The translations under genes and the position numbers were made by a program. From positions 5,268,176-5,332,175 of the forward strand of contig OY979723.1 of NCBI GenBank assembly GCA_963855995.1: a DNA stretch of 64,000 nt. The letters are read 5' to 3'. This stretch comes from Muricea muricata (Eukaryota > Cnidaria > Anthozoa > Malacalcyonacea > Plexauridae). The notes beneath the pieces were generated by a model. It had not been told where the DNA came from. It worked only from the letters and a program-made list of their open reading frames with translations, and did not search any database. Every line of letters starts with the position of its first letter. Within the stretch, counting starts at the first letter, position 1. Below are positions 1-22,160 of this stretch, piece after piece.

Positions 1-10
1 ACCATCGCGA

Positions 11-117
11 TGAGCGAAATAACATGTTGAAATGGGAAACCTATAACTTGCTTTTAAACTGAAAAGAAACGATGTTTGAACCATCAAAGTTGCGTTTTAA
101 GCGTTCTAAAAGCGATT
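11..117 (+). repeat. 108-bp ancestral subunit 1 of the monomer
   Basis: First of three diverged subunits, 107 bp. It starts TGAGCGAAATAACATG and closely resembles the start of subunit 2, TGAGCGTAAAAACATG. Its GTTTT core is at 94, +83 from the box. Its end (GTTTTAAGCG then TTCTAGAA or, here, TTCTAAAA) aligns with the ends of subunits 2 and 3. It is the most AT-rich third, about 35% G+C by hand count on a majority monomer. Confidence 0.75.
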
Positions 118-144
118 TGAGCGTAAAAACATGCTCAAATCGCT
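111..144. other. Dyad at the subunit 1/2 junction, 12-bp arms in this copy
   Basis: AGCGATTTGAGC (111-122) and GCTCAAATCGCT (133-144) are perfect inverted repeats around the loop GTAAAAACAT. Nearly all monomers keep at least the inner 9 bp (GATTTGAGC/GCTCAAATC). Monomers ending TCGCT, for example near 4,843, 6,458 and 8,073, keep all 12. The short-ORF subfamily keeps 7 bp. Copies with CATGATCAAATC carry one mismatch. It could form a cruciform, a transcript hairpin or a dimeric protein-binding site. Which of these, if any, is not shown by the sequence. Confidence 0.8.
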
Positions 145-225
145 AACTAAAAATGGCCATCTTAAATTGATCACGGCGACGTTTTAGAGCTTAAAATGGT
201 GTTTTCAGTGCTGAAGTGAACGAGT
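118..225 (+). repeat. 108-bp ancestral subunit 2 of the monomer
   Basis: Second subunit, 108 bp. It starts TGAGCGTAAAAACATG and continues through CTCAAATC, the right arm of the monomer dyad. GTTTT lies at 201, again +83. Its final 25 bases share 16 identities, by hand count, with the final 25 of subunit 3 (GTTTTC, GCT, AA and GAG in register). This subunit is the one hit by the 107-bp insert in four monomers. Confidence 0.75.
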
Positions 226-333
226 TGAGCGCAATGATGTACTACAATCACGGACCTAAAAGAGACCTTCTAAATGGAAATCGCAGAACTTAGCAAGTCG
301 GGAATCATGTTTTCGGCGCTCAAACCATTGAGA
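226..333 (+). repeat. 108-bp ancestral subunit 3 of the monomer
   Basis: Third subunit, 108 bp. It starts TGAGCGCAATGATGTAC, then ATCACGGACCTAAAAGAG aligns with ATCACCAACTAAAAATTG of subunit 2. GTTTT lies at 309, +83. From about 215 to 285 this part appears to be the least variable stretch of the monomer across the window. It is also the most GC-rich third, about 43% by hand count on a majority monomer. Confidence 0.75.
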
Positions 334-426
334 TGAGCGAAATAACATGTTGAAATGAGAAACCTATAACTTGCTTTTAAACTGAAAAGAAACGATCTTA
401 GAACCATCAAAGTTGCGTTTTAAGCG

Positions 427-434
427 TTCTAGAA
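427..434. other. TTCTAGAA palindrome, representative copy
   Basis: This perfect 8-bp palindrome lies about 6 bp before each monomer dyad and is present in nearly every monomer. A few copies have TTCTAAAA instead (near 104, 9,424 and 10,484) and one has TTCTAGAG (near 42,443). It contains a TCTAGA site, so digestion there should give a ~323-bp ladder. It also matches two inverted nGAAn units of a heat-shock element. A third unit is not present, so factor binding is only a possibility. Confidence 0.7.
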
Positions 435-2055
435 GCGATTTGAGCGTAAAAACATGCTCAAATCACTAACTAAAAATGGCCATCTTAAATTGATCACGGC
501 GACGTTTTAGAGTTTAAAATGGTGTTTTCAGTGCTGAAGTGAACGAGTTGAGCGCAATGATGTACTACAATCACGGACCTAAAAGAGACCTTCTAAATGG
601 AAATCGCAGAACTTAGCAAGTCGGGAATCATGTTTTCGGCGCTCAAACCATTGAGATGAGCGAAATAACATGTTGAAATGAGAAACCCATAAGTTGCTTG
701 TAAACTGAAAAGAAACGGTCTTAGAACAATCAAAATCGCGTTTTAAGCGTTCTAGAAGCGATTTGAGCGTAAAAACATGCTCAAATCACCAAATAAAAAT
801 TGCCGTCTTAAATCGATCACGGCGACGTTTTAGAGCTTAAAATGGTGTTTTCAGTACTGAAGTGAACGAGTTGAGCGCAATGATGTACTACAATCACGGA
901 CCTAAAAGAGACCTTCTAAATGGAAATCGCAGAACTTAGCAAGTCGGGAATCATGTTTTCGGCGCTCAAACCATTGAGATGAGCGAAATAACATGTTGAA
1001 ATGAGAAACCTATAACTTGCTTGTAAACTGAAAAGAAACGATCTTAGAACCATCAAAATCGCGTTTTAAGCGTTCTAGAAGCGATTTGAGCGTAAAAAAA
1101 TGCTCAAATCAACAACTAAAAATTGCCGTCTTAAATCGATCACGGCGACGTTTTAGAGCTTAAAATGGTGTTTTCAGTGCTGAAGTGAACGAGTTGAGCG
1201 CAATGATGTACTGCAATAACGGACCTAAAAGAGACCTTCTAAATGGAAATTGCAGAACTTAGCAAGTCGGGAATCATGTTTTCGGCGTTCAAACCATCGA
1301 GGTGAGCGAAATAACATGTTGAAATGAGAAACCTATAACTTGCTTGTAAACTGAAAAGAAACGATCTTAGAACCATCAAAATCGCGTTTTAAGCGTTCTA
1401 GAAGCGATTTGAGCGTAAAAACATGCTCAAATCACCAAATAAAAATTGCCGTGTTAAATCGATCACGGCGACGTTTTAGAGCTTAAAATGGTGTTTTCAG
1501 TGCAGAAGTGAACGAGTTGAGCGCAATGATGTACTACAATCACGGACCTAAAACAGACCTTCTAAATGGAAATCGCAGAACTTAGCAAATCGGGAATCAT
1601 GTTTTCGGCGCTCAAACCATTGAGATGAGCGAAATAACATTTTGAAATGAGAAACCCATAAGTTGCTTGTAAACTGAAAAGAAACGGTCTTAGAACCATC
1701 AAAATCGCGTTGTAAGCGTTCTAGAAGCGATTTGAGCGTAAAAACATGCTCAAATCACCAAATAAAAATTGCCGTCTTAAATCGATCACGGCGACGTTTT
1801 AGAGCTTAAAATGGTGTTTTCAGTACTGAAGTGAACGAGTTGAGCGCAATGATGTACTACAATCACGGACCTGAAAGAGACCTTCTAAATGGAAATCGCA
1901 GAACTTAGCAAGTCGGGAATCATGTTTTCGGCGCTCAAACCATTGAGATGAGCGAAATAACATGTTGAAATGAGAAACCTATAACTTGTTTGTAAACTGA
2001 AAAAAAACGATCTTAGAACCATCAAAATTGCGTTTTAGGCGTTCTAGAAGCGATT

Positions 2056-2162
2056 AGTAGTGGTAGTAAGTAGTAAAAACTTTTTTTAAAAATCACACGC
2101 TAGCCTAGTCAACTACATAGCTGGTTTCCACTAGGGGCGTGTGTACATACATCACCAACTCA
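2056..2162 (+). other. 107-bp foreign insert, copy 1
   Basis: Not satellite sequence. It starts AGTAGTGGTAGTAAGTAG directly after GAAGCGATT and ends CATCACCAACTCA before GCTCAAATC. It replaces 15 bp (TGAGCGTAAAAACAT), the head of subunit 2, so net gain is 92 bp. Inside are an A/T tract (AAAAACTTTTTTTAAAAATC) and an imperfect hairpin: CACACGCTAGCCTAGT (2094-2109) against ACTAGGGGCGTGTG (2130-2143). The decamer ATCACCAACT occurs at its 3' end (2151-2160) and again in the adjacent monomer (2169-2178). I do not recognise it. It could be a truncated mobile element, filler from break repair, or a fragment of another repeat. No terminal inverted repeats are seen. Confidence 0.8.
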
Positions 2163-3115
2163 GCTCAAATCACCAACTAAAAATTGCCGTCTTAAATCGA
2201 TCACGGCGACGTTTTAGAGTTTAAAATGGTGTTTTCAGTGCTGAAGTGAACGAGTTGAGCGCAATGATGTACTACAATCACGGACCTAAAAGAGACCTTC
2301 TAAATGGAAATCGCAGAACTTAGCAAATCGGGAATCATGTTTTCGGCGCTCAAACCATTGAGATGAGCGAAATAACATTTTGAAATGAGAAACCCATAAG
2401 TTGCTTGTAAACTGAAAAGAAACGGTCTTAGAACCATCAAAATCGCGTTTTAAGCGTTCTAGAAGCGATTTGAGCGTAAAAACATGCTCAAATCACCAAA
2501 TAAAAATTGCCGTCTTAAATCGATCACGGCGACGTTTTAGAGCTTAAAATGGTGTTTTCAGTGCAGAAGTGAACGAGTTGAGCGCAATGATGTACTACAA
2601 TCACGGACCTAAAACAGACCTTCTAAATGGAAATCGCAGAACTTAGCAAATCGGGAATCATGTTTTCTTCGCTCAAACCATTGAGATGAGCGAAATAACA
2701 TTTTGAAAAGAGAAACCCATAAGTTGCTTGTAAACTGAAAAGAAACGGTCTTAGAACCATCAAAATCGCGTTTTAAGCGTTCTAGAAGCGATTTGAGCGT
2801 AAAAACATGCTCAAATCACCAAATAAAAATTGCCGTCTTAAATCGATCACGGCGACGTTTTAGAGCTTAAAATGGTGTTTTCAGTGCTGAAGTGAACGAG
2901 TTGAGCGAATGATGTACTACAATCACGGACCTGAAAGAGACCTTCTAAATGGAAATCGCAGAACTTAGCAAGTCGGGAATCATGTTTTCGGCGCTCAAAC
3001 CATTGAGATGAGCGAAATAACATGTTGAAATGAGAAACCTATAACTTGTTTGTAAACTGAAAAAAAACGATCTTAGAACCATCAAAATTGCGTTTTAGGC
3101 GTTCTAGAAGCGATT

Positions 3116-3222
3116 AGTAGTGGTAGTAAGTAGTAAAAACTTTTTTTAAAAATCACACGCTAGCCTAGTCAACTACATAGCTGGTTTCCACTAGGGGCGT
3201 GTGTACATACATCACCAACTCA
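3116..3222 (+). other. 107-bp foreign insert, copy 2
   Basis: Reads the same as the copy at 2056, including the CTTTTTTTAAAAATC tract, 1,060 bp downstream. The flanking monomer shares the private variants CTTGTTTG and TTTTAGGCGTTC. The downstream monomer differs at GCCGTGTT and GGCTACG, so small mutations followed the duplication. Confidence 0.8.
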
Positions 3223-3619
3223 GCTCAAATCACCAACTAAAAATTGCCGTGTTAAATCGATCACGGCTACGTTTTAGAGTTTAAAATGGTGTTTTCAGTG
3301 CTGAAGTGAACGAGTTGAGCGCAATGATGTACTACAATCACGGACCTAAAAGAGACCTTCTAAATGGAAATCGCAGAACTTAGCAAATCGGGAATCATGT
3401 TTTCGGCGCTCAAACCATTGAGATGAGCGAAATAACATTTTGAAATGAGAAACCCATAAGTTGCTTGTAAACTGAAAAGAAACGGTCTTAGAACCATCAA
3501 AATCGCGTTTTAAGCGTTCTAGAAGCGATTTGAGCGTAAAAACATGCTCAAATCACCAAATAAAAATTGCCGTCTTAAATCGATCACGGCGACGTTTTAG
3601 AGCTTAAAAGGGTGTTTTC

Positions 3620-6600
3620 AGTGCTGAAGTGAACGAGTTGAGCGCAATGATGTACTACAATCACGGACCTAAAAGAGACCTTCTAAATGGAAATCGCAGA
3701 ACTTAGCAAGTCGGGAATCATGTTTTCGGCGCTCAAACCATTGAGATGAGCGAAATAACATGTTGAAATGAGAAACCTATAACTTGCTTTTAAACTGAAA
3801 AGAAACGATCTTAGAACCATCAAAGTTGCGTTTTAAGCGTTCTAGAAGCGATTTGAGCGTAAAAACATACTCAAATCACTAACTAAAAATGGCCATCTTA
3901 AATTGATCACGGCGACGTTTTAGAGCTTAAAATGGTGTTTTCAGTGCTGAAGTGAACGAGTTGAGCGCAATGATGTACTACAATCACGGACCTAAAAGAG
4001 ACCTTCTAAATGGAAATCGCAGAACTTAGCAAGTCGGGAATCATGTTTTCGGCGCTCAAACCATTGAGATGAGCGAAATAACATGTTGAAATGAGAAACC
4101 TATAACTTGCTTGTTAACTGAAAAGAAACGATCTTAGAACCATCAAAATCGCGTTTTAAGCGTTCTAGAAGCGATTTGAGCGTAAAAACATGCTCAAATC
4201 ACCAAATAAAAATTGCCGTCTTAAATCGATCACGGCGACGTTTTAGAGTTTAAAATGGTGTTTTCAGTGCTGAAGTGAACGAGTTGAGCGCAATGATGTA
4301 CTACAATCACGGACCTAAAAGAGACCTTCTAAATGGAAATCGCAGAACTTAGCAAATCGGGAATCATGTTTTCGGCGCTCAAACCATTGAGATGAGCGAA
4401 ATAACATTTTGAAATGAGAAACCCATAAGTTGCTTGTAAACTGAAAAGAAACGGTCTTAGAACCATCAAAATCGCGTTTTAAGCGTTCTAGAAGCGATTT
4501 GAGCGTAAAAACATGCTCAAATCACCAAATAAAAATTGCCGTCTTCAATCGATCACGGCGACGTTTTAGAGCTTAAAAGGGTGTTTTCAGTGCTGAAGTG
4601 AACGAGTTGAGCGCAATGATGTACTACAATCACGGACCTAAAAGAGACCTTCTAAATGGAAATTGCAGAAGTTAGCAAGTCGGGAATCATGTTTTCGGCT
4701 TTCAAACCATCGAGATGAGCGAAATAACATGTTGAAATGGGAAACCTATCACTTGCTTTAAAACTGAAAAGAAACGATGTTTGAACCATCAAAGTTGCGT
4801 TTTAAGCGTTCTAGAAGCGATTTGAGCGTAAAAACATGCTCAAATCGCTAACTAAAAATGGCCATCTTAAATTGATCACGGCGACGTTTTAGAGCTTAAA
4901 ATGGTGTTTTCAGTGCTGAAGTGAACGAGTTGAGCGCAATGATGTACTACAATCACGGACCTAAAAGAGACCTTCTAAATGGAAATCGAAGAACTTAGCA
5001 AGTCGGGAATCATGTTTTCGGCGCTCAAACCATTGAGATGAGCGAAATAACATGTTGAAATGAGAAACCCATAAGTTGCTTGTAAACTGAAAAGAAACGG
5101 TCTTAGAACAATCAAAATCGCGTTTTAAGCGTTCTAGAAGCGATTTGAGCGTAAAAACATGCTCAAATCACAAAATAAAAATTGCCGTCTTAAATCGATC
5201 ACGGCGACGTTTTAGAGCTTAAAATAGTGTTTTCAGTACTGAAGTGAACGAGTTGAGCGCAATGATGTACTACAATCACGGACCTAAAAGAGACCTTCTA
5301 AATGGAAATCGCAGAACTTAGCAAGTCGGGAATCATGTTTTCGGCGCTCAAACCATTGAGATGAGCGAAATAACATGTTGAAATGAGAAACCTATAACTT
5401 GCTTTTAAACTGAAAACAAACGATCTTAGAACCATCAAAGTTGCGTTTTAAGCGTTCTAGAAGCGATTTGAGCGTAAAAACATGCTCAAATCACTAACTA
5501 AAAATGGCCATCTTAAATTGGTCACGGCGACGTTTTAGAGCTTAAAATGGTGTTTTCAGTGCTGAAGTGAACGAGTTGAGCGCAATGATGTACTACAATC
5601 ACGGACCTAAAAGAGACCTTCTAAATGGAAATCGCAGAACTTAGCAAGTCGGGAATCATGTTTTCGGCGCTCAAACCATTGAGATGAGCGAAAAAACATG
5701 TTGAAATGAGAAACCTATAACTTGCTTGTTAACTGAAAAGAAACGATCTTAGAACCATCAAAATCGCGTTTTAAGCGTTCTAGAAGCGATTTGAGCGTAA
5801 AAACATGCTCAAATCACCAAATAAAAATTGCCGTCTTAAATCGATCACGGCGACGTTTTAGAGTTTAAAATGGTGTTTTCAGTGCTGAAGTGAACGAGTT
5901 GAGCGCAATGATGTACTACAATCACGGACCTAAAAGAGACCTTCTAAATGGAAATCGCAGAACTTAGCAAATCGGGAATCATGTTTTCGGCGCTCAAACC
6001 ATTGAGATGAGCGAAATAACATTTTGAAATGAGAAACCCATAAGTTGCTTGTAAACTGAAAAGAAACGGTCTTAGAACCATCAAAATCGCGTTTTAAGCG
6101 TTCTAGAAGCGATTTGAGCGTAAAAACATGCTCAAATCACCAAATAAAAATTGCCGTCTTCAATCGATCACGGCGACGTTTTAGAGCTTAAAAGGGTGTT
6201 TTCAGTGCTGAAGTGAACGAGTTGAGCGCAATGATGTACTACAATCACGGACCTAAAAGAGACCTTCTAAATGGAAATTGCAGAAGTTAGCAAGTCGGGA
6301 ATCATGTTTTCGGCTTTCAAACCATCGAGATGAGCGAAATAACATGTTAAAATGGGAAACCTATCACTTGCTTTAAAACTGAAAAGAAACGATGTTTGAA
6401 CCATCAAAGTTGCGTTTTAAGCGTTCTAGAAGCGATTTGAGCGTAAAAACATGCTCAAATCGCTAACTAAAAATGGCCATCTTAAATTGATCACGGCGAC
6501 GTTTTAGAGCTTAAAATGGTGTTTTCAGTGCTGAAGTGAACGAGTTGAGCGCAATGATGTACTACAATCACGGACCTAAAAGAGACCTTCTAAATGGAAA

Positions 6601-8620
6601 TCGAAGAACTTAGCAAGTCGGGAATCATGTTTTCGGCGCTCAAACCATTGAGATGAGCGAAATAACATGTTGAAATGAGAAACCCATAAGTTGCTTGTAA
6701 ACTGAAAAGAAACGGTCTTAGAACAATCAAAATCGCGTTTTAAGCGTTCTAGAAGCGATTTGAGCGTAAAAACATGCTCAAATCACCAAATAAAAATTGC
6801 CGTCTTAAATCGATCACGGCGACGTTTTAGAGCTTAAAATAGTGTTTTCAGTACTGAAGTGAACGAGTTGAGCGCAATGATGTACTACAATCACGGACCT
6901 AAAAGAGACCTTCTAAATGGAAATCGCAGAACTTAGCAAGTCGGGAATCATGTTTTCGGCGCTCAAACCATTGAGATGAGCGAAATAACATGTTGAAATG
7001 AGAAACCTATAACTTGCTTTTAAACTGAAAAGAAACGATCTTAGAACCATCAAAGTTTCGTTTTAAGCGTTCTAGAAGCGATTTGAGCGTAAAAACATGC
7101 TCAAATCACTAACTAAAAATGGCCATCTTAAATTGGTCACGGCGACGTTTTAGAGCTTAAAATGGTGTTTTCAGTGCTGAAGTGAACGAGTTGAGCGCAA
7201 TGATGTACTACAATCACGGACCTAAAAGAGACCTTCTAAATGGAAATCGCAGAACTTAGCAAGTCGGGAATCATGTTTTCGGCGCTCAAACCATTGAGAT
7301 GAGCGAAAAAACATGTTGAAATGAGAAACCTATAACTTGCTTGTTAACTGAAAAGAAACGATCTTAGAACCATCAAAATCGCGTTTTAAGCGTTCTAGAA
7401 GCGATTTGAGCGTAAAAACATGCTCAAATCACCAAATAAAAATTGCCGTCTTAAATCGATCACGGCGACGTTTTAGAGTTTAAAATGGTGTTTTCAGTGC
7501 TGAAGTGAACGAGTTGAGCGCAATGATGTACTACAATCACGGACCTAAAAGAGACCTTCTAAATGGAAATCGCAGAACTTAGCAAATCGGGAATCATGTT
7601 TTCGGCGCTCAAACCATTGAGATGAGCGAAATAACATTTTGAAATGAGAAACCCATAAGTTGCTTGTAAACTGAAAAGAAACGGTCTTAGAACCATCAAA
7701 ATCGCGTTTTAAGCGTTCTAGAAGCGATTTGAGCGTAAAAACATGCTCAAATCACCAAATAAAAATTGCCGTCTTCAATCGATCACGGCGACGTTTTAGA
7801 GCTTAAAAGGGTGTTTTCAGTGCTGAAGTGAACGAGTTGAGCGCAATGATGTACTACAATCACGGACCTAAAAGAGACCTTCTAAATGGAAATTGCAGAA
7901 GTTAGCAAGTCGGGAATCATGTTTTCGGCTTTCAAACCATCGAGATGAGCGAAATAACATGTTGAAATGGGAAACCTATCACTTGCTTTAAAACTGAAAA
8001 GAAACGATGTTTGAACCATCAAAGTTGCGTTTTAAGCGTTCTAGAAGCGATTTGAGCGTAAAAACATGCTCAAATCGCTAACTAAAAATGGCCATCTTAA
8101 ATTGATCACGGCGACGTTTTAGAGCTTAAAATGGTGTTTTCAGTGCTGAAGTGAACGAGTTGAGCGCAATGATGTACTACAATCACGGACCTAAAAGAGA
8201 CCTTCTAAATGGAAATCGAAGAACTTAGCAAGTCGGGAATCATGTTTTCGGCGCTCAAACCATTGAGATGAGCGAAATAACATGTTGAAATGAGAAACCC
8301 ATAAGTTGCTCGTAAACTGAAAAGAAACGGTCTTAGAACAATCAAAATCGCGTTTTAAGCGTTCTAGAAGCGATTTGAGCGTAAAAATATGCTCAAATCA
8401 CCAAATAAAAATTTGCCGTTTTAAATCGATCACGGCGACGTTTTAGAGCTTAAAATAGTGTTTTCAGTACTGAAGTGAACGAGTTGAGCGCAATGATGTA
8501 CTACAATCACGGACCTAAAAGAGACCTTCTAAATGGAAATCGCAGAACTTAGCAAGTCGGGAATCATGTTTTCGGCGCTCAAACCATTGAGATGAGCGAA
8601 ATAACATGTTGAAATGAGAA
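3620..8620 (+). repeat. 5-mer higher-order repeat, 1,615-bp period
   Basis: About three copies of a five-monomer unit. CTATCACTTGCTTTAAAACTG-type monomers sit at 4,746, 6,361 and 7,976, and TTGTTAACTG at 4,111, 5,726 and 7,341; all steps are exactly 1,615 bp. Within the unit run five classes, including one with AAAATAGTG and CAGTACTG, one with ATTTTGAAATG, and one with AAAAGGGTG followed by TTGCAGAAGTTAGC. Private changes (GAAAACAAACG near 5,414; AAAGTTTCG near 7,053; ATTTGCCGTTTT near 8,411) show mutation after amplification. Edges are where variant sharing at this period ends. Confidence 0.88.
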
Positions 8621-8699
8621 ACCTATAACTTGTTTGTAAACTGAAAAGAAACGATCTTAGAACCATCAAAATTGCGTTTTAGGCGTTCTAGAAGCGATT

Positions 8700-8806
8700 A
8701 GTAGTGGTAGTAAGTAGTAAAAACTTTATTTAAAAATCACACGCTAGCCTAGTCAACTACATAGCTGGTTTCCACTAGGGGCGTGTGTACATACATCACC
8801 AACTCA
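8700..8806 (+). other. 107-bp foreign insert, copy 3
   Basis: Same insert and same junctions as the copies near 2-3 kb. One base distinguishes this pair: CTTTATTTAAAAATC instead of CTTTTTTTAAAAATC. The hairpin arms CACACGCTAGCCTAGT and ACTAGGGGCGTGTG are unchanged. Confidence 0.8.
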
Positions 8807-9759
8807 GCTCAAATCACCAACTAAAAATTGCCGTCTTAAATCGATCACGGCGACGTTTTAAAGCTTAAAATGGTGTTTTAAGTGCTGAAGTGCACGAGTT
8901 GAGCGCAATGATGTAATACAATCACGGACCTAAAAGAAACCTTCTAAATGGAAATCGCAGAACTTAGCAAGTCGGGAATCATGTTTTCGGCGCTCAAACC
9001 ATTGAGATGAGCGAAATAACATGTTGAAATGAGAAACCTATAACTTGCTTGTTAACTGAAAAGAAACGGTCTTAGAACCATCAAAATCGCGTTTTAAGCG
9101 TTCTAGAAGCGATTTGAGCGTAAAAACATGCTCAAATCACCAAATAAAAATTGCCGTCTTAAATCGATCACGGCGACGTTTTAGAGCTTAAAAGGGTGTT
9201 TTCAGTGCTGAAGTGAACGAGTTGAGCGCAATGATGTACTACAATCACGGACCTAAAAGAGACCTTCTAAATGGAAATTGCAGAAGTTAGCAAGTCGGGA
9301 ATCATGTTTTCGGCTTTCAAACCATCGAGATGAGCGAAATAACATGTTGAAATGGGAAACCTATAACTTGCTTTTAAACTGAAAAGAAACGATGTTTGAA
9401 CCATCAAAGTTGCGTTTTAAGCGTTCTAAAAGCGATTTGAGCGTAAAAACATGCTCAAATCGCTAACTAAAAATGGCCATCTTAAATTGATCACGGCGAC
9501 GTTTTAGAGCTAAAATGGTGTTTTCAGTGCTGAAGTGAACGAGTTGAGCGCAATGATGTACTACAATCACGGACCTAAAAGAGACCTTCTAAATGGAAAT
9601 CGCAGAACTTAGCAAGTCGGGAATCATGTTTTCGGCGCTCAAACCATTGAGATGAGCGAAATAACATGTTGAAATGAGAAACCTATAACTTGTTTGTAAA
9701 CTGAAAAGAAACGATCTTAGAACCATCAAAATTGCGTTTTAGGCGTTCTAGAAGCGATT

Positions 9760-9866
9760 AGTAGTGGTAGTAAGTAGTAAAAACTTTATTTAAAAATCAC
9801 ACGCTAGCCTAGTCAACTACATAGCTGGTTTCCACTAGGGGCGTGTGTACATACATCACCAACTCA
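9760..9866 (+). other. 107-bp foreign insert, copy 4
   Basis: Reads the same as the copy at 8700, including CTTTATTT, and lies 1,060 bp downstream within the duplicated trimer. No further copy was found after this point. Confidence 0.8.
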
Positions 9867-10749
9867 GCTCAAATCACCAACTAAAAATTGCCGTCTTAAA
9901 TCGATCACGGCGACGTTTTAAAGCTTAAAATGGTGTTTTAAGTGCTGAAGTGCACGAGTTGAGCGCAATGATGTAATACAATCACGGACCTAAAAGAAAC
10001 CTTCTAAATGGAAATCGCAGAACTTAGCAAGTCGGGAATCATGTTTTCGGCGCTCAAACCATTGAGATGAGCGAAATAACATGTTGAAATGAGAAACCTA
10101 TAACTTGCTTGTTAACTGAAAAGAAACGGTCTTAGAACCATCAAAATCGCGTTTTAAGCGTTCTAGAAGCGATTTGAGCGTAAAAACATGCTCAAATCAC
10201 CAAATAAAAATTGCCGTCTTAAATCGATCACGGCGACGTTTTAGAGCTTAAAAGGGTGTTTTCAGTGCTGAAGTGAACGAGTTGAGCGCAATGATGTACT
10301 ACAATCACGGACCTAAAAGAGACCTTCTAAATGGAAATTGCAGAAGTTAGCAAGTCGGGAATCATGTTTTCGGCTTTCAAACCATCGAGATGAGCGAAAT
10401 AACATGTTGAAATGGGAAACCTATAACTTGCTTTTAAACTGAAAAGAAACGATGTTTGAACCATCAAAGTTGCGTTTTAAGCGTTCTAAAAGCGATTTGA
10501 GCGTAAAAACATGCTCAAATCGCTAACTAAAAATGGCCATCTTAAATTGATCACGGCGACGTTTTAGAGCTAAAATGGTGTTTTCAGTGCTGAAGTGAAC
10601 GAGTTGAGCGCAATGATGTACTACAATCACGGACCTAAAAGAGACCTTCTAAATGGAAATCGCAGAACTTAGCAAGTCGGGAATCATGTTTTCGGCGCTC
10701 AAACCATTGAGATGAGCGAAATAACATGTTGAAATGAGAAACCTATAAC

Positions 10750-11850
10750 TTGCTTTTAAACTGAAAAGAAACGATCTTAGAACCATCAAAGTTGCGTTTT
10801 AAGCGTTCTAGAAGCGATTTGAGCGTAAAAACATGCTCAAATCACTAACTAAAAATGGCCATCTTAAATTGATCACGGCGACGTTTTAGAGTTTAAAATG
10901 GTGTTTTCAGTGCTGAAGTGAACGAGTTGAGCGCAATGATGTACTAAAATCACGGACCTAAAAGAGACCTTCTAAATGGAAATCGCAGAACTTAGCAAGT
11001 CGGGAATCATGTTTTCGGCGCTCAAACCATTGAGATGAGCGAAATAACATGTTGAAATGAGAAACCTATAACTTGCTTTTAAACTGAAAAGAAACGATGT
11101 TAGAACCATCAAAGTTGCGTTTTAAGCGTTCTAGAAGCGATTTGAGCGTAAAAACATGCTCAAATCACTAACTAAAAATGGCCATCTTAAATTGAACACG
11201 GCGACGTTTTAGAGCTTAAAATGGTGTTTTCAGTCCTGAAGTGAACGAGTTGAGCGCAATGATGTACTACAATCACGGACCTAAAAGAGACCTTCTAAAT
11301 GGAAATCGCAGAACTTAGCAAGTCGGGAATCATGTTTTCGGCGCTCAAACCATTGAGATGAGCGAAATAACATGTTGAAATGAGAAACCTATAACTTGCT
11401 TGTAAACTGAAAAGAAACGATCTTAGAACCATCAAAATCGCGTTTTAAGCGTTCTAGAAGCGATTTGAGCGTAAAAACATGATCAAATCACCAAATAAAA
11501 ATTCCCGTCTTAAATCGATCACGGCGACGTTTTAGAGCTTAAAATGGTGTTTTCAGTGCTGAAGTGAACGAGTTGAGCGCAATGATGTACTACAATCACG
11601 GACCTAAAAGAGACCTTCTAAATGGAAATCGCAGAACTTAGCAAGTCGGGAATCATGTTTTCGGCGCTCAAACCATTGAGATGAGCGAAATAACATGTTG
11701 AAATTAGAAACCCATAAGTTGCTTGTAAACTGAAAAGAAACGGTCTTAGAACCATCAAAATCGCGTTTTAAGCGTTCTAGAAGCGATTTGAGCGTAAAAA
11801 CATGCTCAAATCACCAAATAAAAATTGCTGTCTTAAATCGATCACGGCGA
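10750..11850 (+). repeat. Irregular satellite monomers
   Basis: About 3.4 monomers of mixed classes. One carries the CATGATCAAATC change and AAATTCCCG (near 11,478-11,505), a class that becomes frequent after 40 kb. No higher-order period and no gene are seen. Confidence 0.8.
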
Positions 11851-13870
11851 CGTTTTAGAGCTTAAAATGGTGTTTTCAGTGCTGAAGTGAACGAGTTGAG
11901 CGCAATGATGTACTACAATCACGGACCTAAAAGAGACTTTCTAAATGGAAATCGCAGAACTTAGCAAGTCGGGAATCATGTTTTCGGCGCTCAAACCATT
12001 GAGATGAGCGAAATAACATGTTGAAATGAGAAACCTATAACTTGCTTGTAAACTGAAAGGAAACGGTCTTAGAACCATCAAAATCGCGTTTTAAGCGTTC
12101 TAGAAGCGATTTGAGCGTAAAAACATGCTCAAATCACCAAATAAAAATTGCCGTCTTAAATCGATCACGGCGACGTTTTAGAGTTTAAAATGGTGTTTTC
12201 AGTGCTGAAGTGAACGAGTTGAGCGCAATGATGTACTACAATCACGGACCTAAAAGAGACCTTCTAAATGGAAATCGCAGAACTTAGCAAGTCGGGAATT
12301 ATGTTTTCGGCGCTTAAACCATCGAGATGAGCGAAATAACATGTTGAAATGAGAAACCTATAACTTGCTTGTAAACTGAAAAGAAACGATCTTAGAACCA
12401 TCAAAATCGCGTTTTAAGCGTTCTAGAAGCGATTTGAGCGTAAAAACATGCTCAAATCACCAACTAAAAATTGCCGTCTTAAATCGATCACGGCGACGTT
12501 TTAGAGCTTAAAAGGGTGTTTTCAGTTCTGAAGTGAACGAGTTGAGCGCAATGATGTACTACAATCACGGACCTAAAAGAGACCTTCTAAATGGAAATTG
12601 CAGAAGTTAGCAAGTCGGGAATCATGTTTTCGGCTTTCAAACCATCGAGATGAGCGAAATAACATGTTGAAATGGGAAACCTATAACTTGCTTTTAAACT
12701 GAAAAGAAACGATCTTAGAACCATCAAAGTTGCGTTTTAAGCGTTCTAGAAGCGATTTGAGCGTAAAAACATGCTCAAATCACTAACTAAAAATGGCCAT
12801 CTTAAATTGATCACGGCGACGTTTTAGAGCTTAAAATGGTGTTTTCAGTGCTGAAGTGAACGAGTTGAGCGCAATGATGTACTACAATCACGGACCTAAA
12901 AGAGACTTTCTAAATGGAAATCGCAGAACTTAGCAAGTCGGGAATCATGTTTTCGGCGCTCAAACCATTGAGATGAGCGAAATAACATGTTGAAATGAGA
13001 AACCTATAACTTGCTTGTAAACTGAAAGGAAACGGTCTTAGAACCATCAAAATCGCGTTTTAAGCGTTCTAGAAGCGATTTGAGCGTAAAAACATGCTCA
13101 AATCACCAAATAAAAATTGCCGTCTTAAATCGATCACGGCGACGTTTTAGAGTTTAAAATGGTGTTTTCAGTGCTGAAGTGAACGAGTTGAGCGCAATGA
13201 TGTACTACAATCACGGACCTAAAAGAGACCTTCTAAATGGAAATCGCAGAACTTAGCAAGTCGGGAATTATGTTTTCGGCGCTTAAACCATCGAGATGAG
13301 CGAAATAACATGTTGAAATGAGAAACCTATAACTTGCTTGTAAACTGAAAAGAAACGATCTTAGAACCATCAAAATCGCGTTTTAAGCGTTCTAGAAGCG
13401 ATTTGAGCGTAAAAACATGCTCAAATCACCAACTAAAAATTGCCGTCTTAAATCGATCACGGCGACGTTTTAGAGCTTAAAAGGGTGTTTTCAGTTCTGA
13501 AGTGAACGAGTTGAGCGCAATGATGTACTACAATCACGGACCTAAAAGAGACCTTCTAAATGGAAATTGCAGAAGTTAGCAAGTCGGGAATCATGTTTTC
13601 GGCTTTCAAACCATCGAGATGAGCGAAATAACATGTTGAAATGGGAAACCTATAACTTGCTTTTAAACTGAAAAGAAACGATCTTAGAACCATCAAAGTT
13701 GCGTTTTAAGCGTTCTAGAAGCGATTTGAGCGTAAAAACATGCTCAAATCACTAACTAAAAATGGCCATCTTAAATTGATCACGGCGACGTTTTAGAGCT
13801 TAAAATGGTGTTTTCAGTGCTGAAGTGAACGAGTTGAGCGCAATGATGTACTACAATCACGGACCTAAAA
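11850..13870 (+). repeat. Trimer HOR, 969-bp period, two copies
   Basis: Three-monomer unit repeated once. Shared private variants 969 bp apart: AAGAGACTTT (11,931 and 12,900), CTGAAAGGAAACGG (near 12,053 and 13,022), GGGAATTATG (near 12,294 and 13,263) and TTCAGTTCTG (12,521 and 13,490). The module order is a class ending GCGCTTAAACCATCG, then a class with AAAAGGGTG and GCAGAAGTT, then a class with GGGAAACC and AATGGCCATC. This three-class order recurs at several places farther right. Confidence 0.85.
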
Positions 13871-16800
13871 GAGACCTTCTAAATGGAAATCGCAGAACTT
13901 AGCAAGTCGGGAATCATGTTTTCGGCGCTCAAACCATTGAGATGAGCGAAATAACATGTTGAAATGAGAAACCTATAACTTGCTTGTAAACTGAAAAGAA
14001 ACGATCTTAGAACCATCAAAATCACGTTTTAAGCGTTCTAGAAGCGATTTGAGCGTAAAAAAATGCTCAAATCACCAACTAAAAATTGCCGTCTTAAATC
14101 GATCACGGCGACGTTTTAGAGCTTAAAATAGTGTTTTCAGTGCTGAAGTGAACGAGTAGAGCGGAATGATGTACTGCAATAACGGACCTAAAAGAGACCT
14201 TCTAAATGGAAATTGCAGAACTTAGCAAGTCGGGAATCATGTTTTCGGCGTTCAAACCATCGAGATGAGCGAAATAACATGTTGAAATGAGAAACCTATA
14301 ACTTGCTTGTAAACTGAAAAGAAACGATCTTAGAGCCATCAAAATCGCGTTTTAAGTGTTCTAGAAGCGATTTGAGCGTAAAAACGTGCTCAAATCACCA
14401 ACTAATAATTGCCGTTTTAAATCGATCACGGCGACGTTTTAGAGCTTAAAATGGTGTTTTAAGTGCTGAAGTGAACAAGTTGAGCGCAATGATGTAATAC
14501 AATCACCGACCTAAAAGAAACCTTCTAAATGGAAATCGCAGAACTTAGCAAGTCGGGAATCATGTTTTCGGCGCTCAAAACATTGAGATGAGCGAAATAA
14601 CATGTTGAAATGAGAAACCTATAAGTTGCTTGTAAACTGAAAAGAAACGGTCTTAGAACTATCAAAATCGCGTTTTAAGCGTTCTAGAAGCGATTTGAGC
14701 GTAAAAACATGCTCAAAACACCAACTAAAAATTGCCGTCTGAAATCGATCACGGCGACTTTTGGAGCTTAAAATAGTGTTTTCAGTGCTGAAGTGAACGA
14801 GTTGAGCGCAATGATGTACTACAATCACGGACCTAAAAGAGACCTTCTAAATGGAAATCGCAGAACTTAGCAAGTCGGGAATCATGTTTTCGGCGCTCAA
14901 GCCATTGAGATGAGCGAAATAACATGTTGAAATGAGAAACCTATAACTTGCTTGTAAACTGAAAAGAAACGATCTTAGAACCATCAAAATCGCGTTTTAA
15001 GCGTTCTAGAAGCGATTTGAGCGTAAAAACATGCTCAAATCACCAAATAAAAATTGCCGTCTTAAATCGATCACGGCGACGTTTTAGAGCTTAAAATGGT
15101 GTTTTCAGTGCTTAAGTGAACGAGTTGAGCGCAATGATGTACTAAAATCACGGACCTAAAAGAGACCATCTAAATGGAAATCGCAGAACTTAGCAAGTCG
15201 GGAATCATGTTTTCGGCGCTCAAACCATTGAGATGAGCGAAATAACATGTTGAAATGAGAAACCCATAAGTTGCTTTTAAACTGAAAGGAAATGGTCTTA
15301 GAACCATCAAAATCGCGTTTTAAGCGTTCTAGAAGCGATTTGAGCGTAAAAACATGCTCAAATCACCAAATAAAAATTGCCGTCTTAAATCGATCACGGC
15401 GACGTTTTAGAGCTTAAAATGGTGTTTTCAGTGCTCAAGTGAACGAGTTGAGCGCAATGATGTACTACAATCACGGACCTAAAAGAGACCTTCTAAATGG
15501 AAATCGCAGAACTTAGCAAGTCGGGAATTATGTTTTCGGCGCTTAAACCATCGAGATGAGCGAAATAACATGTTGAAATGAGAAACCTATAACTTGCTTG
15601 TAAACTGAAAAGAAACGATCTTAGAACCATCAAAATCGCGTTTTAAGCGTTCTAGAAGCGATTTGAGCGTAAAAACATACTCAAATCACCAACTAAAAAT
15701 TGCCGTCTTAAATCGATCACGGCGACGTTTTAGAGCTTAAAAGGGTGTTTTCAGTGCTGAAGTGAACGAGTTGAGCGCAATGATGTACTACAATCACGGA
15801 CCTAAAAGAGACCTTCTAAATGGAAATTGCAGAAGTTAGCAAGTCGGGAATCATGTTTTCGGCTTTCAAACCATCGAGATGAGCGAAATAACATGTTGAA
15901 ATGGGAAACCTATAACTTGCTTTTAAACTGAAAAGAAACGATGTTAGAACCATCAAAGTTGCGTTTTAAGCGTTCTAGAAGCGATTTGAGCGTAAAAACA
16001 TGCTCAAATCACTAACTAAAAATGGCCATCTTAAATTGATCACGGCGACGTTTTAGAGCTTAAAATGGTGTTTTCAGTGCTGAAGTGAACGAGTTGAGCG
16101 CAATGATGTACTACAATCACGGACCTAAAAGAGACCTTCTAAATGGAAATCGAAGAACTTAGCAAGTCGGGAATCATGTTTTCGGCGCTCAAACCATTGA
16201 GATGAGCGAAATAACATGTTGAAATGAGAAACCTATAACTTGCTTGTAAACTGAAAAGAAACGATCTTAGAACCATCAAAATCGCGTTTTAAGCGTTCTA
16301 GAAGCGATTTGAGCGTAAAAACATGATCAAATCACCAAATAAAAATTCCCGTCTTAAATCGATCACGGCGACGTTTTAGAGCTTAAAATGGTGTTTTCAG
16401 TGCTGAAGTGAACGAGTTGAGCGCAATGATGTACTACAATCACGGACCTAAAAGAGACCTTCTAAATGGAAATCGCAGAAATTAGCAAGTCGGGAATCAT
16501 GTTTTCGGCGCTCAAACCATTGAGATGAGCGAAATAACATGTTGAAATGAGAAACCCATAAGTTGCTTGTAAACTGAAAGGAAACGGTCTTAGAACCATC
16601 AAAATCGCGTTTTAAGCGTTCTAGAAGCGATTTGAGCGTAAAAACATGCTCAAGTCACCAAATAAAAATTGCCGTCTTAAATCGATCACGGCGACGTTTT
16701 AGAGCTTAAAATGGTGTTTTCAGTGCTGAAGTGAACGAGTTGAGCGCAATGATGTACTACAATCACGGACCTAAAAGAGACCTTCTAAATGGAAATCGCA

Positions 16801-17410
16801 GAACTTAGCAAGTCGGGAATCATGTTTTCGGCGCTCAAACCATTGAGATGAGCGAAATAACATGTTGAAATGAGAAACCTAGAACTTGCTTGTAAACTGA
16901 AAAGAAACGATCTTAGAACCATCAAAATCGCGTTTTAAGCGTTCTAGAAGCAATTTGAGCGTAAAAACATGCTCAAATCACCAACTAAAAATTGCCGTCT
17001 TAAATCGATCACGGCGACGTTTTAGAGCTTAAAAGGGTGTTTTCAGTGCTGAAGTGAACGAGTTGAGCGCAATGATGTACTACAATCACGGACCTAAAAG
17101 AGACCTTCTAAATGGAAATTGCAGAAGTTAGCAAGTCGGGAATCATGTTTTCGGCTTTCAAACCATCGAGATGAGCGAAATAACATGTTGAAATGGGAAA
17201 CCTATAACTTGCTTTTAAACTGAAAAGAAACGATCTTAGAACCATCAAAGTTGCGTTTTAAGCGTTCTAGAAGCGATTTGAGCGTAAAAACATGCTCAAA
17301 TCACTAACTAAAAATGGCCGTCTTAAATCGATCACGGCGACGTTTTAGAGGTTAAAATGATGTTTTCAGTGCTGAAGTGAACGAGTTGAGCGCAATGATG
17401 TACTAAAATC
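13870..17410 (+). repeat. Irregular satellite monomers
   Basis: About eleven monomers in mixed order with no exact local period. The first short-ORF monomer lies near 14,590-14,900. The stretch near 15,100-15,300 carries CAGTGCTTAAGTG and GAAATGGTC, a linked pair of variants seen again near 25.4, 29.3 and 39.6 kb. These are therefore pieces of a block shared with the middle of the array. No gene is seen. Confidence 0.8.
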
Positions 17411-18810
17411 ACGGACCTAAAAGAGACCTTCTAAATGGAAATCGCAGAACTTAGCAAGTCGGGAATCATGTTTTCGGCGCTCAAACCATTGAGATGAGCG
17501 AAATAACATGTTGAAATGAGAAACCCATAAGTTGCTTGTAAACTGAAAGGAAACGGTCTTAGAACCATCAAAATCGCGTTTTAAGCGTTCTAGAAGCGAT
17601 TTGAGCGTAAAAACATGCTCAAATCACCAAATAAAAATATCCGTCTTAAATCGATCACGGCGACGTTTTAGAGCTTAAAATGGTGTTTTCAGTGCTGAAG
17701 TGAACGAGTTGAGCGCAATGATGTACTACAATCACGGACCTAAAAGAGACCTTCTAAATGGAAATCGCAGAACTTAGCAAGTCGGGAATTATGTTTTCGG
17801 CCCTTAAACCATCGAGATGAGCGAAATAACATGTTGAAATGAGAAACCTATAACTTGCTTGTAAACTGAAAAGAAACGATCTTAGAACCATCAAAATCGC
17901 GTTTTAAGCGTTCTAGAAGCGATTTGAGCGTAAAAACATGCTAAAATCACCAACTAAAAATTGCCGTCTTAAATCGATCACGGCGACGTTTTAGAGCTTA
18001 AAATGGTGTTTTCAGTGCTGAAGTGAACGAGTTGAGCGCAATGATGTACTACAATCACGGACCTAAAAGAGACCTTCTAAATGGAAATCGCAGAACTTAG
18101 CAAGTCGGGAATCATGTTTTCGGCGCTCAAACCATTGAGATGAGCGAAATAACATGTTGAAATGAGAAACCCATAAGTTGCTTGTAAACTGAAAGGAAAC
18201 GGTCTTAGAACCATCAAAATCGCGTTTTAAGCGTTCTAGAAGCGATTTGAGCGTAAAAACATGCTCAAATCACCAAATAAAAATATCCGTCTTAAATCGA
18301 TCACGGCGACGTTTTAGAGCTTAAAATGGTGTTTTCAGTGCTGAAGTGAACGAGTTGAGCGCAATGATGTACTACAATCACGGACCTAAAAGAGACCTTC
18401 TAAATGGAAATCGCAGAACTTAGCAAGTCGGGAATTATGTTTTCGGCGCTTAAACCATCGAGATGAGCGAAATAACATGTTGAAATGAGAAACCTATAAC
18501 TTGCTTGTAAACTGAAAAGAAACGATCTTAGAACTATCAAAATCGCGTTTTAAGCGTTCTAGAAGCGATTTGAGCGTAAAAACATGCTAAAATGACCAAC
18601 TAAAAATTGCCGTCTTAAATCGATCACGGCGACGTTTTAGAGCTTAAAATGGTGTTTTCAGTGCTGAAGTGAACGAGTTGAGCGCAATGATGTACTACAA
18701 TCACGGACCTAAAAGAGACCTTCTAAATGGAAATCGCAGAACTTAGCAAGTCGGGAATCATGTTTTCGGCGCTCAAACCATTGAGATGAGCGAAATAACA
18801 TGTTGAAATG
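17410..18810 (+). repeat. Dimer HOR, 646-bp period
   Basis: Two copies of a two-monomer unit. AATAAAAATATCCG (17,630 and 18,276) and CATGCTAAAAT (near 17,937 and 18,583) recur at 646 bp. Single differences (GGCCCTTAAACC near 17,800; AATGACC near 18,592) mark later mutation in one copy. Confidence 0.82.
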
Positions 18811-21800
18811 AGAAACCTATAAGTTGCTTGTAAACTGAAAAGAAACGGTCTTAGAACCATCAAAATCGCGTTTTAAGCGTTCTAGAAGCGACTTGAGCGT
18901 AAAAACATGCTCAAATCACCAAATAAAAATTGCCGTCTTAAATCGATCACGGCGACGTTTTAGAGCTTAAAATGGTGTTTTCAGTGCTGAAGTGAACGAG
19001 TTGAGCGCAATGATGTACTACAATCACGGACCTAAAAGAGACCTTCTAAATGGAAATCGCAGAACTTAGCAAGTCGGGAATCATGTTTTCGGCGCTCAAA
19101 CCATTGAGATGAGAGAAATAACATGTTGAAATGAGAAACCGATAAGTTGCTTGTAAACTGAAAAGAAACGGTCTTAGAACTATCAAAATCGCGTTTTAAG
19201 CGTTCTAGAAGCGATTTGAGCGTAAAAACATGCTCAAAACACCAACTAAAAATTGCCGTCTGAAATCGATCACGGCGACTTTTGGAGCTTAAAATAGTGT
19301 TTTCAGTGCTGAAGTGAACGAGTTGAGCGCAATGATGTACTACAATCACGGACCTAAAAGAGACCTTCTAAATGGAAATCGCAGAACTTAGCAAGTCGGG
19401 AATCATGTTTTCGGCGCTCAAAACATTGAGATGAGCGAAATAACATGTTGAAATGAGAAACCTATAAGTTGCTTGTAAACTGAAAAGAAACGGTCTTAGA
19501 ACCATCAAAATCGCGTTTTAAGCGTTCTAGAAGCGATTTGAGCGTAAAAACATGCTCAAATCACCAAATAAAAATTGCCGTCTTAAATCGATCACGGCGA
19601 CGTTTTAGAGCTTAAAATGGTGTTTTCAGTGCTGAAGTGAACGAGTTGAGCGCAATGATGTACTACAATCACGGACCTAAAAGAGACCTTCTAAATGGAA
19701 ATCGCAGAACTTAGCAAGTCGGGAATCATGTTTTCGGCGCTCAAACCATTGAGATGAGCGAAATAACATGTTGAAATGAGAAACCGATAAGTTGCTTGTA
19801 AACTGAAAAGAAACGGTCTTAGAACTATCAAAATCGCGTTTTAAGCGTTCTAGAAGCGATTTGAGCGTAAAAACATGCTCAAAACACCAACTAAAAATTG
19901 CCGTCTGAAATCGATCACGGCGACTTTTGGAGCTTAAAATAGTGTTTTCAGTGCTGAAGTGAACGAGTTGAGCGCAATGATGTACTACAATCACGGACCT
20001 AAAAGAGACCTTCTAAATGGAAATCGCAGAACTTAGCAAGTCGGGAATCATGGTTTCGGCGCTCAAACCATTGAGATGAGCGAAATAACATGTTGAAATG
20101 AGAAACCTATAACTTGCTTGCAAACTGAAAAGAAACGATCTTAGAACCATCAAAATCGCGTTTTAAGCGTTCTAGAAGCGATTTGAGCGTAAAAACGTGC
20201 TCAAATCACCAACTAATAATTGCCGTCTTAAATCGATCACGGCGACGTTTTAGAGCTTAAAATGGTGTTTTAAGTGCTGAAGTGAACGAGTTGAGCGCAA
20301 TGATGTACTACAATCACGGACCTAAAAGAGACCTTCTAAATGGAAATCGCAGAACTTAGCAAGTCGGGAATCATGTTTTCGGCGCTCAAAACATTGAGAT
20401 GAGCGAAATAACATGTTGAAATGAGAAACCTATAAGTTGCTTGTAAACTGAAAAGAAACGGTCTTAGAACCATCAAAATCGCGTTTTAAGCGTTCTAGAA
20501 GCGATTTGAGCGTAAAAACATGCTCAAATCACCAAATAAAAATTGCCGTCTTAAATCGATCACGGCGACGTTTTAGAGCTTAAAATGGTGTTTTCAGTGC
20601 TGAAGTGAACGAGTTGAGCGCAATGATGTACTACAATCACGGACCTAAAAGAGACCTTCTAAATGGAAATCGCAGAACTTAGCAAGTCGGGAATCATGTT
20701 TTCGGCGCTAAAACCATTGAGATGAGAGAAATAACATGTTGAAATGAGAAACCGATAAGTTGCTTGTAAACTGAAAAGAAACGGTCTTAGAACTATCAAA
20801 ATCGCGTTTTAAGCGTTCTAGAAGCGATTTGAGCGTAAAAACATGCTCAAAACACCAACTAAAAATTGCCGTCTGAAATCGATCACGGCGACTTTTGGAG
20901 CTTAAAATAGTGTTTTCAGTGCTGAAGTGAACGAGTTGAGCGCAATGATGTACTACAATCACGGACCTAAAAGAGACCTTCTAAATGGAAATCGCAGAAC
21001 TTAGCAAGTCATGAATCATGTTTTCGGCGCTCAAAACATTGAGATGAGCGAAATAACATGTTGAAATGAGAAACCTATAAGTTGCTTGTAAACTGAAAAG
21101 AAACGGTCTTAGAACCATCAAAATCGCGTTTTAAGCGTTCTAGAAGCGATTTGAGCGTAAAAACATGCTCAAATCACCAAATAAAAATTGCCGTCTTAAA
21201 TCGATCACGGCGACGTTTTAGAGCTTAAAATGGTGTTTTCAGTGCTGAAGTGAACGAGTTGAGCGCAATGATGTACTACAATCACGGACCTAAAAGAGAC
21301 CTTCTAAATGGAAATGGCAGAACTTAGCAAGTCGGGAATCATGTTTTCGGCGCTCAAACCATTGAGATGAGCGAAATAACATGTTGAAATGAGAAACCGG
21401 TAAGTTGCTTGTAAATTTAAAAGAAACGGTCTTAGAACTATCAAAATCGCGTTTTAAGCGTTCTAGAAGCGATTTGAGCGTAAAAACATGCTCAAAACAC
21501 CAACTAAAAATTGCCGTCTGAAATCGATCACGGCGACTTTTGGAGCTTAAAATAGTGTTTTCAGTGCTGAAGTGAACGAGTTGAGCGCAATGATGTACTA
21601 CAATCACGGACCTAAAAGAGACCTTCTAAATGGAAATCGCAGAACTTAGCAAGTCGGGAATCATGTTTTCGGCGCTCAAACCATTGAGATGAGCGAAATA
21701 ACATGTTGAAATGAGAAACCGATAAGTTGCTTGTAAACTGAAAAGAAACGGTCTTAGAACTATCAAAATCGCGTTTTAAGCGTTCTAGAAGCGATTTGAG

Positions 21801-22160
21801 CGTAAAAACATGCTCAAAACACCAACTAAAAATTGCCGTCTGAAATCGATCACGGCGACTTTTGGAGCTTAAAATAGTGTTTTCAGTGCTGAAGTGAACG
21901 AGTTGAGCGCAATGATGTACTACAATCACGGACCTAAAAGAGACCTTCTAAATGGAAATCGCAGAACTTAGCAAGTCGGGAATCATGTTTTCGGCGCTCA
22001 AACCATTGAGATGAGCGAAATAACATGTTGAAATGAGAAACCCATAAGTTGCTTGTAAACTGAAAGGAAACGGTCTTAGAAGCATCAAAATCGCGTTTTA
22101 AGCGTTCTAGAAGCGATTTGAGCGTAAAAACATGCTCAAATAAACAAATAAAAATTGCCG
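18810..22160 (+). repeat. Block rich in the 322-bp monomer subfamily
   Basis: Monomers of the 322-bp class (GTCTGAAATCG, GACTTTTGGAG, AAAATAGTG, CTCAAAACACC) alternate with a class having CAAAACATTG then CCTATAAG. The 322-bp class lies near 19.1, 19.75, 20.7, 21.36 and 21.68 kb, the last two directly in tandem. One bp is missing relative to other monomers (GACTTTTGG for GACGTTTTAG), which explains spacings of 322 and 645. A rare GATGAGAGAAAT change is shared near 19,108 and 20,721. The class is open in one minus-strand frame for up to 105 codons. I treat that as chance. Confidence 0.82.

What the first reader, a model, noticed from the sequence alone, without database searches (positions are those of the whole stretch)
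11..333. The 323-bp monomer is itself an ancient trimer of a ~108-bp unit
TGAGCG occurs at 11, 118, 226 and 334, with steps of 107, 108 and 108. A GTTTT core follows each at exactly +83 (94, 201, 309). Between these anchors the units align: ACATG plus AAAT in units 1 and 2, ATCAC plus CTAAAA in 2 and 3, and GTTTTC..GCT..AA..GAG in 2 and 3 (16 of the last 25 bases by hand count). The layering is therefore 108 bp, then 323 bp, then multi-monomer repeats.
Basis: seen in the sequence. Interest (0 to 1): 0.75.

Follow-up and report, generated by a model that had tools for sequence, protein, structure and literature searches.

The report
Satellite repeat built from three subunits
The stretch is part of a long block of non-coding satellite DNA whose 323-base repeat is three old, diverged copies of a unit of about 108 bases; this is a real and tidy example of a well-known way in which satellite repeats evolve.

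Summary
The whole 64-kb window is one 323-bp satellite: of 196 bounded monomers, 192 are 322-324 bp and 4 carry a 107-bp insert. Each monomer is three subunits, A (107), B (108) and C (108), all starting at TGAGCG. Identity in register is 59% (A-B), 57% (B-C) and 54% (A-C). None of 5000 dinucleotide shuffles per pair reaches the observed scores. At lag 108, 154 of 323 bases agree; the best of 2000 shuffled monomers at any lag from 15 to 161 gives 122. Monomers are 96% alike, and the three subunit classes do not overlap (lowest within-class identity 0.85, highest between-class 0.617). None of 196 monomers has gained or lost a subunit, so 323 bp is the unit now turning over. The 'multi-monomer' level is irregular block duplication (exact tracts up to 4,077 bp), not a fixed higher-order repeat. 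This is ordinary satellite evolution, like the New World monkey 343-bp repeat derived from a 171-bp dimer. Species, chromosomal position and any 108-bp ancestor array could not be tested: the genome search did not complete (ten tries).

The parts
1..64000 (+). Continuous head-to-tail array of the 323-bp satellite, all copies in one direction; no closed ORF of 110 aa or more (bacterial code), no tRNA gene found
   Evidence: 197 anchors on the + strand, spacings 322-324 or 415 only; 0 anchors on the - strand
11..333 (+).
11..117 (+). Subunit A, 107 bp
118..225 (+). Subunit B, 108 bp
226..333 (+). Subunit C, 108 bp
111..144 (.). Inverted repeat across the A/B boundary (12-bp arms 111-122 and 133-144, 10-bp loop); perfect in the first copy, 2 of 12 pairs mismatched in the consensus
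   Evidence: not significant on its own (13.6% of 500 shuffled monomers hold a dyad with 10-bp arms and at most one mismatch, as the consensus does)
2056..2162 (.). 107-bp non-satellite insert in place of 15 bp at the A/B boundary, copy 1
3116..3222 (.). Same insert, copy 2 (identical to copy 1)
8700..8806 (.). Same insert, copy 3 (1 difference from copy 1)
9760..9866 (.). Same insert, copy 4 (whole 415-bp monomer identical to that of copy 3)
22160..30108 (+). Longest exact block duplication: 4,077 bp starting at 22160 recurs at 26032 (offset 3,872 = 12 monomers, so two 12-monomer blocks in tandem)

Best explanation
This is non-coding eukaryotic satellite DNA (eukaryotic origin inferred). An older array of units of about 108 bp accumulated differences. 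A run of three neighbouring, already diverged units (A-B-C) then became the unit copied by unequal exchange or other block amplification, and spread until the whole 64 kb consisted of it. At 54-59% identity the three subunits are now too different to recombine with each other, so turnover goes on in steps of whole 323-bp monomers, often several at once. Shown: trimeric homology, class separation, homogeneity of monomers, absence of subunit gain or loss, block duplications, an insert copied along with its neighbours. Inferred: the ancestral simple 108-bp array, the mechanism of exchange, and a likely role as (peri)centromeric or other heterochromatin. Also inferred, and weakest: the trimer length (2 x 161.5 bp) and the A/T-dinucleotide rhythm of roughly 10-11 bp suit packing into two nucleosomes, which may be why this multimer won.
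For: For each pair of subunits 0 of 5000 dinucleotide shuffles reach the observed score; lag-108 match 154/323 against at most 122 in 2000 shuffles. The same lag dominates in the raw window (0.464 at 108 and 0.458 at 215; mean of lags 20-300 is 0.266). Mean identity between 192 monomers is 0.961. Subunits within a class are at least 0.85 alike and between classes at most 0.617. Of 196 bounded monomers, 166 are 323 bp, 23 are 322, 3 are 324 and 4 are 415 bp (with insert); none is off by ~108. Variants do not come from the other subunits: in 65 of 186 comparisons of a minor allele with the differing homologous base of another subunit the two agree (0.349), against 0.346 in 26 shifted registers. 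Exact duplicate tracts of 4,077, 2,291, 1,223 bp and less lie at whole-monomer offsets. A/T-dinucleotide power in the 9.5-11-bp band exceeds trimer-preserving column shuffles (peak P 0.0024; sum 0 of 5000) and 3-column block shuffles (P 0.0082 and 0.0012). Monomer sizes of 150-180 and 300-360 bp are described as usual and linked to one or two nucleosomes (PMC5874043, passages).
Against: No simple 108-bp array was seen, so the ancestor is inferred only. Homology weakens in the middle of the unit (columns 55-72: A-B 33%, B-C 44%, A-C 50%), so part of a subunit might have been replaced. Position in the genome, species and chromatin state are unknown. Columns conserved among A, B and C looked less polymorphic in the array (0.016 against 0.030), but this vanishes when base and CpG context are matched (P 0.19), so there is no evidence of selection on particular bases. 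Against the nucleosome part: taken singly, the subunits have their best A/T period at 11.2, 11.2 and 11.0 bp, and the consensus peaks near 10.8 and 9.75 bp rather than at one value near 10.2. No CENP-B box.
Confidence: 0.88

Rival explanations
1. The 108-bp period is chance: recurring A/T-rich words and a helical rhythm of about 10 bp make any monomer look self-similar.
For: There is a real 10-11-bp A/T rhythm, and the next best lags (127, 87, 21, 64) are near whole helical turns or 108 plus or minus such turns.
Against: Those lags reach only 111, 110, 105 and 103 of 323, against 154 at lag 108 and 122 at lag 107. No shuffle out of 5000 per pair or 2000 per monomer reaches the observed values.
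Confidence: 0.02
2. The trimer did not come from a long 108-bp array; two duplications by slippage inside a single-copy or transposon-derived sequence made A-B-C, which was then amplified.
For: It gives the same three diverged units; no 108-bp array is in the window; the three pairwise distances are similar (0.60, 0.63, 0.71), so branching order is unresolved.
Against: Units of near equal length joined head to tail with one constant start, wrapping from C to A without spacer, are most simply an in-phase cut from a longer tandem array. Not decisive.
Confidence: 0.1
3. A, B and C are kept alike by selection for nucleosome placement or protein binding rather than by descent.
For: A/T rhythm; shared TGAGCG and GTTTT anchors; lower raw polymorphism at columns shared by all three.
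Against: The polymorphism difference is not significant once base and CpG context are matched (P 0.19). Similarity runs through the units in collinear order, more than convergence would be expected to give.
Confidence: 0.03

Closest known systems
New World monkey 343-bp centromeric repeat, a diverged dimer of the 171-bp alpha satellite (Melters et al. 2013, PMC4053949, passages read)
   Same: A multimer of an older unit became the new homogeneous monomer; the parts are only weakly related to each other.
   Different: Trimer of ~108 bp instead of dimer of 171 bp; no CENP-B box; its sequence was not compared with ours; centromeric position not shown here. That paper rarely saw units of three or more, which it puts down to read length.
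Bread wheat satellite TaeSat15-620 and the wheat satellitome (PMC10827815, passages read)
   Same: TaeSat15-620 is described as four sub-repeats of 155 bp, and all satellites analysed there as holding internal direct sub-repeats from past lengthening.
   Different: Other unit length and number. A wheat satellite of 322 bp (TaeSat20-322) is named there; its sequence was not held and not compared.
PaB6 satellite of Prospero autumnale, 249 bp with nested sub-repeats (Emadzade et al. 2014, PMC4273535, passages read)
   Same: A satellite monomer of higher order made from diverged sub-repeats.
   Different: Two sub-repeats, each of three smaller ones, with telomere-like motifs; some clones of 119 and 175 bp were found there, whereas none of 196 monomers here lacks or gains a subunit.
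Vaccinium satellites VaccSat1, 2, 5 and 6 (PMC7290377, passages read)
   Same: Monomers composed of diverged subunits described as higher-order arrangement.
   Different: Two kinds of subunit, other lengths; no sequence comparison made here.

Membership tests
Satellite repeat derived from a multimer (composite or higher-order monomer) | Long-unit copies much more alike than the subunits inside them | tested here: met
   Mean 0.961 between 192 monomers against means of 0.53-0.57 between subunit classes
Satellite repeat derived from a multimer (composite or higher-order monomer) | Tandem-repeat score higher for the multimer than for the basic unit (criterion in PMC4053949) | tested here: met
   TRF 99227 for 323 bp against 11959 for 108 bp over about the same span
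Satellite repeat derived from a multimer (composite or higher-order monomer) | Subunits group by position in the multimer | tested here: met
   Lowest within-class identity 0.85, highest between-class 0.617, 192 monomers; no tree was built
Satellite repeat derived from a multimer (composite or higher-order monomer) | Arrays of the simple unit exist in the same genome or a relative | not tested
   The genome search did not answer in ten tries; viral, phage, plasmid and prokaryote collections gave only matches taken as chance
Multi-monomer higher-order repeat above 323 bp | A fixed number of monomers repeats across the array | tested here: not met
   Mean identity is flat (0.959-0.968) for shifts of 1-29 monomers; the 15 exact tract pairs of 800 bp or more lie at shifts of 3 (6 pairs), 5, 8, 10 (2 each), 11, 12 and 22 monomers (1 each)
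CENP-B-binding centromeric satellite | CENP-B box TTCGNNNNANNCGGG | tested here: not met
   Best sites in the consensus have 3 of 9 fixed bases wrong; 5 such sites against 3.9 on average in 300 shuffles
Centromeric satellite | Lies at the centromere and carries CENH3/CENP-A nucleosomes | not testable with these tools
   Needs mapping, FISH or ChIP

The most novel reading that the evidence does not exclude
A 108-bp unit is too short to match a nucleosome repeat, but three units make 323 bp, which is two nucleosome repeats of 161-162 bp. The trimer may have been the multimer that took over because it is the smallest whole number of units that fits a nucleosome ladder, so that chromatin packing, not chance exchange, chose the level at which this satellite is now amplified.
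Probability: 0.15. Interest if true: 0.5.

Novelty: new member of a known kind. Interest (0 to 1): 0.25.

Why it matters
It adds a clean, quantified case of a three-unit ancestor inside a satellite monomer. It allows a simple test of whether multimers that take over an array are those that fit nucleosome spacing. The block duplications and the four copies of one insert also give a readable record of how the array grows. Otherwise the biology is as expected.

Tried and rejected
First cut of monomers used a short anchor that also hits subunit B and left only 15 monomers; replaced by a 45-base anchor. The monomer counts are from then on. Dropped before the counts: the four insert-bearing monomers (from the alignment of 192), the first 8 bases, and the last copy, from 63665, which is not bounded by a next anchor.

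A gapped rotation test (second half) was ill-posed, because end gaps make small rotations score highest; it is ignored, and the ungapped lag test is used instead.

Purifying selection at columns shared by A, B and C: raw difference in polymorphism 0.016 against 0.030 (Mann-Whitney P 6e-5), but base- and CpG-matched permutation P 0.19; rejected. Exchange between subunits: no excess; rejected. A further halving or thirding of the 108-bp unit: no lag near 54 or 36 among the twelve best; rejected. CENP-B box: rejected. Hairpin at the A/B boundary as a functional signal: not better than chance. RNA family: one sub-threshold match (Tombus_5, 20.9 bits against a cut-off of 43, E 0.62) in window 1-4000, the only part searched, taken as chance.

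Relatives: an 18-base pattern matched 1 viral contig and 8 prokaryote contigs, once each; about 7-8 are expected by chance in 257 billion bases (my arithmetic), and blastn of the doubled consensus against the nine loci gave only isolated pieces of at most 27 bases. Distant blastn: no plasmid match; 14 phage records share one 43-44-base stretch at E 0.01-0.05, taken as chance. The ancestral-type pattern found 0 viral contigs; it was not run on other collections. Literature: nine searches. Size terms gave no satellite of this make-up, judged from the listings and from passages of three listed papers: the 323-bp sequence of PMC7010299 is a spliced retrotransposon product, the 108 bp of PMC10827815 is a differing stretch between two wheat satellites, and 'trimeric' in PMC5996420 is about microsatellites. 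The other papers listed there were not opened. Six 15-base pieces of the monomer (three sites, both strands) were sought in the text of the held papers; one piece occurs once, in a hen-liver study by its title (not opened), taken as chance. Searches were for precedents; of PMC8822648 only passages were seen. I did not identify the species.

Full report
What is there. The 64-kb window is a single head-to-tail array. A 45-base anchor finds 197 copies on the + strand with at most 4 mismatches, spaced 323 (166), 322 (23), 324 (3) or 415 (4) bases apart, and none on the other strand. There is no closed ORF of 110 aa or more under the bacterial code, no tRNA gene, and G+C stays at 0.386-0.395 in each 2-kb step. 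The 192 monomers of normal length are on average 96.1% identical (lowest pair 91.0%). A homogeneous non-coding array of this kind is eukaryotic satellite DNA (inference from general knowledge; no database match names a species).

The observation. The hexamer and GTTTT positions are exactly as stated, and so is the 16/25 count. They recur along the array: three TGAGCG in 180 of 192 monomers, and three TGAGCG each with GTTTT at +82 to +84 in 178 of 192. One small slip: in the first copy the true counterpart of unit 3's ATCAC is ATCGC at 139-143.

Is it more than chance? The consensus monomer against itself at lag 108 agrees at 154 of 323 bases; the mean over lags 1-161 is 85.6 with s.d. 11.3. 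In 2000 dinucleotide shuffles the best lag from 15 to 161 never exceeded 122. Gapped alignments of the three consensus subunits give 73/112 (A-B), 62/108 (B-C) and 61/109 (A-C) identical columns, with 0 of 5000 shuffles reaching any of the scores (89, 78, 65); the reverse-complement control scores 19 for each pair. In one common register with a single gap the values are 63/107, 62/108 and 58/107, and 45 columns are the same in all three. TRF reports the 108-bp period independently at 56% matches. The rhythm of about 10-11 bp in A/T dinucleotides is real but explains only the secondary lags (21, 64, 87, 127), which reach 103-111. Homology is uneven along the unit: strongest over the first 36 columns (0.61-0.83), weakest in columns 55-72 (0.33-0.50).

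How it evolves. Within each subunit class, identity across 192 monomers is 0.85 or higher (means 0.959-0.965); between classes it never exceeds 0.617. Jukes-Cantor distances are 0.60-0.71 between subunits and 0.04 between monomers, so trimer formation is much older than the present homogenisation. No monomer among 196 has gained or lost a subunit, and polymorphic bases do not come from the other subunits more often than from shifted positions (65/186 = 0.349 against a mean of 0.346). So the subunits no longer exchange with each other at a level that this window shows. Turnover is by blocks of whole monomers: exact duplicates of 4,077 bp (22160 and 26032, 12 monomers apart), 2,291 bp (53916 and 56500, 8 apart) and many shorter. 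Shifts vary, and the mean identity at shifts of 1-29 monomers is flat (0.959-0.968), so there is no fixed higher-order repeat above 323 bp.

A marker of block growth. Four monomers (1947, 3007, 8591, 9651) carry a 107-bp non-satellite insert in place of 15 bp at the A/B boundary. They lie in two pairs, each 1,060 bp apart, and the pairs are 6,644 bp apart. The two 415-bp monomers of the second pair are identical, those of the first differ at 2 of 415 bases, and across pairs 9-11 bases differ. One insertion followed by a short and a longer duplication explains this (inference; the order of the two duplications is not settled). The insert's right end repeats ATCACCAACT, which also lies just downstream in the satellite, as would be expected of repair-copied filler, though a mobile element is not excluded.

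Function. No coding capacity, no CENP-B box and no evidence that the shared columns are under selection (P 0.19 after matching base and CpG context). The most likely role is structural: (peri)centromeric or other heterochromatin, by analogy with satellites of this size. Two papers give 150-180 and 300-360 bp as the common monomer sizes (PMC5874043 and PMC7644632, passages), and the first links this to one or two nucleosomes. 323 bp fits; 108 bp does not. This suggests, without proof, why a trimer was the multimer that spread. A point against: the subunits taken singly show best A/T periods of 11.0-11.2 bp, and the consensus has twin peaks near 10.8 and 9.75 bp, not the single value near 10.2 bp that strong nucleosome positioning would be expected to give (the value is recalled).

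What is known. Formation of new monomers from multimers is established: Melters et al. 2013 (PMC4053949, passages) describe higher-order structure in 76 of 171 species and the New World monkey 343-bp repeat as a doubled 171-bp unit; units of three or more were rarely found there, which the authors put down to read length. In bread wheat one satellite is described as four sub-repeats of 155 bp (PMC10827815, passages). PaB6 and Vaccinium satellites also contain diverged sub-repeats. The present array is a new example of that kind. Whether this very satellite is already described could not be told: nine searches of the held papers showed none that I could match to it, but the species is unknown, most listed papers were not opened, sequences are seldom printed in text, and most subscription papers are not held.

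Noticed in passing
2056-2162, 3116-3222, 8700-8806, 9760-9866: A 107-bp non-satellite insert at the same point of four monomers, in place of 15 bp; it can fold into a long imperfect hairpin (RNA energy -27.6 kcal/mol) and its right end repeats ATCACCAACT of the neighbouring satellite. Origin (filler DNA or small mobile element) unknown.
   Followed up: partly
22160-30108: A 4,077-bp tract recurs exactly 3,872 bp further on, so two neighbouring 12-monomer blocks are identical: a very recent duplication, or possibly an assembly artefact.
   Followed up: partly
1-64000: Strand asymmetry of the whole array: AT skew +0.152 to +0.186 and GC skew +0.055 to +0.102 in the 32 steps of 2 kb.
   Followed up: no
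181-206: Subunit B reads GTTTTAGAGCTTAAAATGGTGTTTTC, which resembles the start of a type II CRISPR repeat (recalled, from no call); in a satellite of this kind it is taken as coincidence.
   Followed up: no
111-144: Perfect 12-bp inverted repeat with a 10-bp loop across the A/B boundary, the place where the 107-bp insert landed in other monomers.
   Followed up: partly
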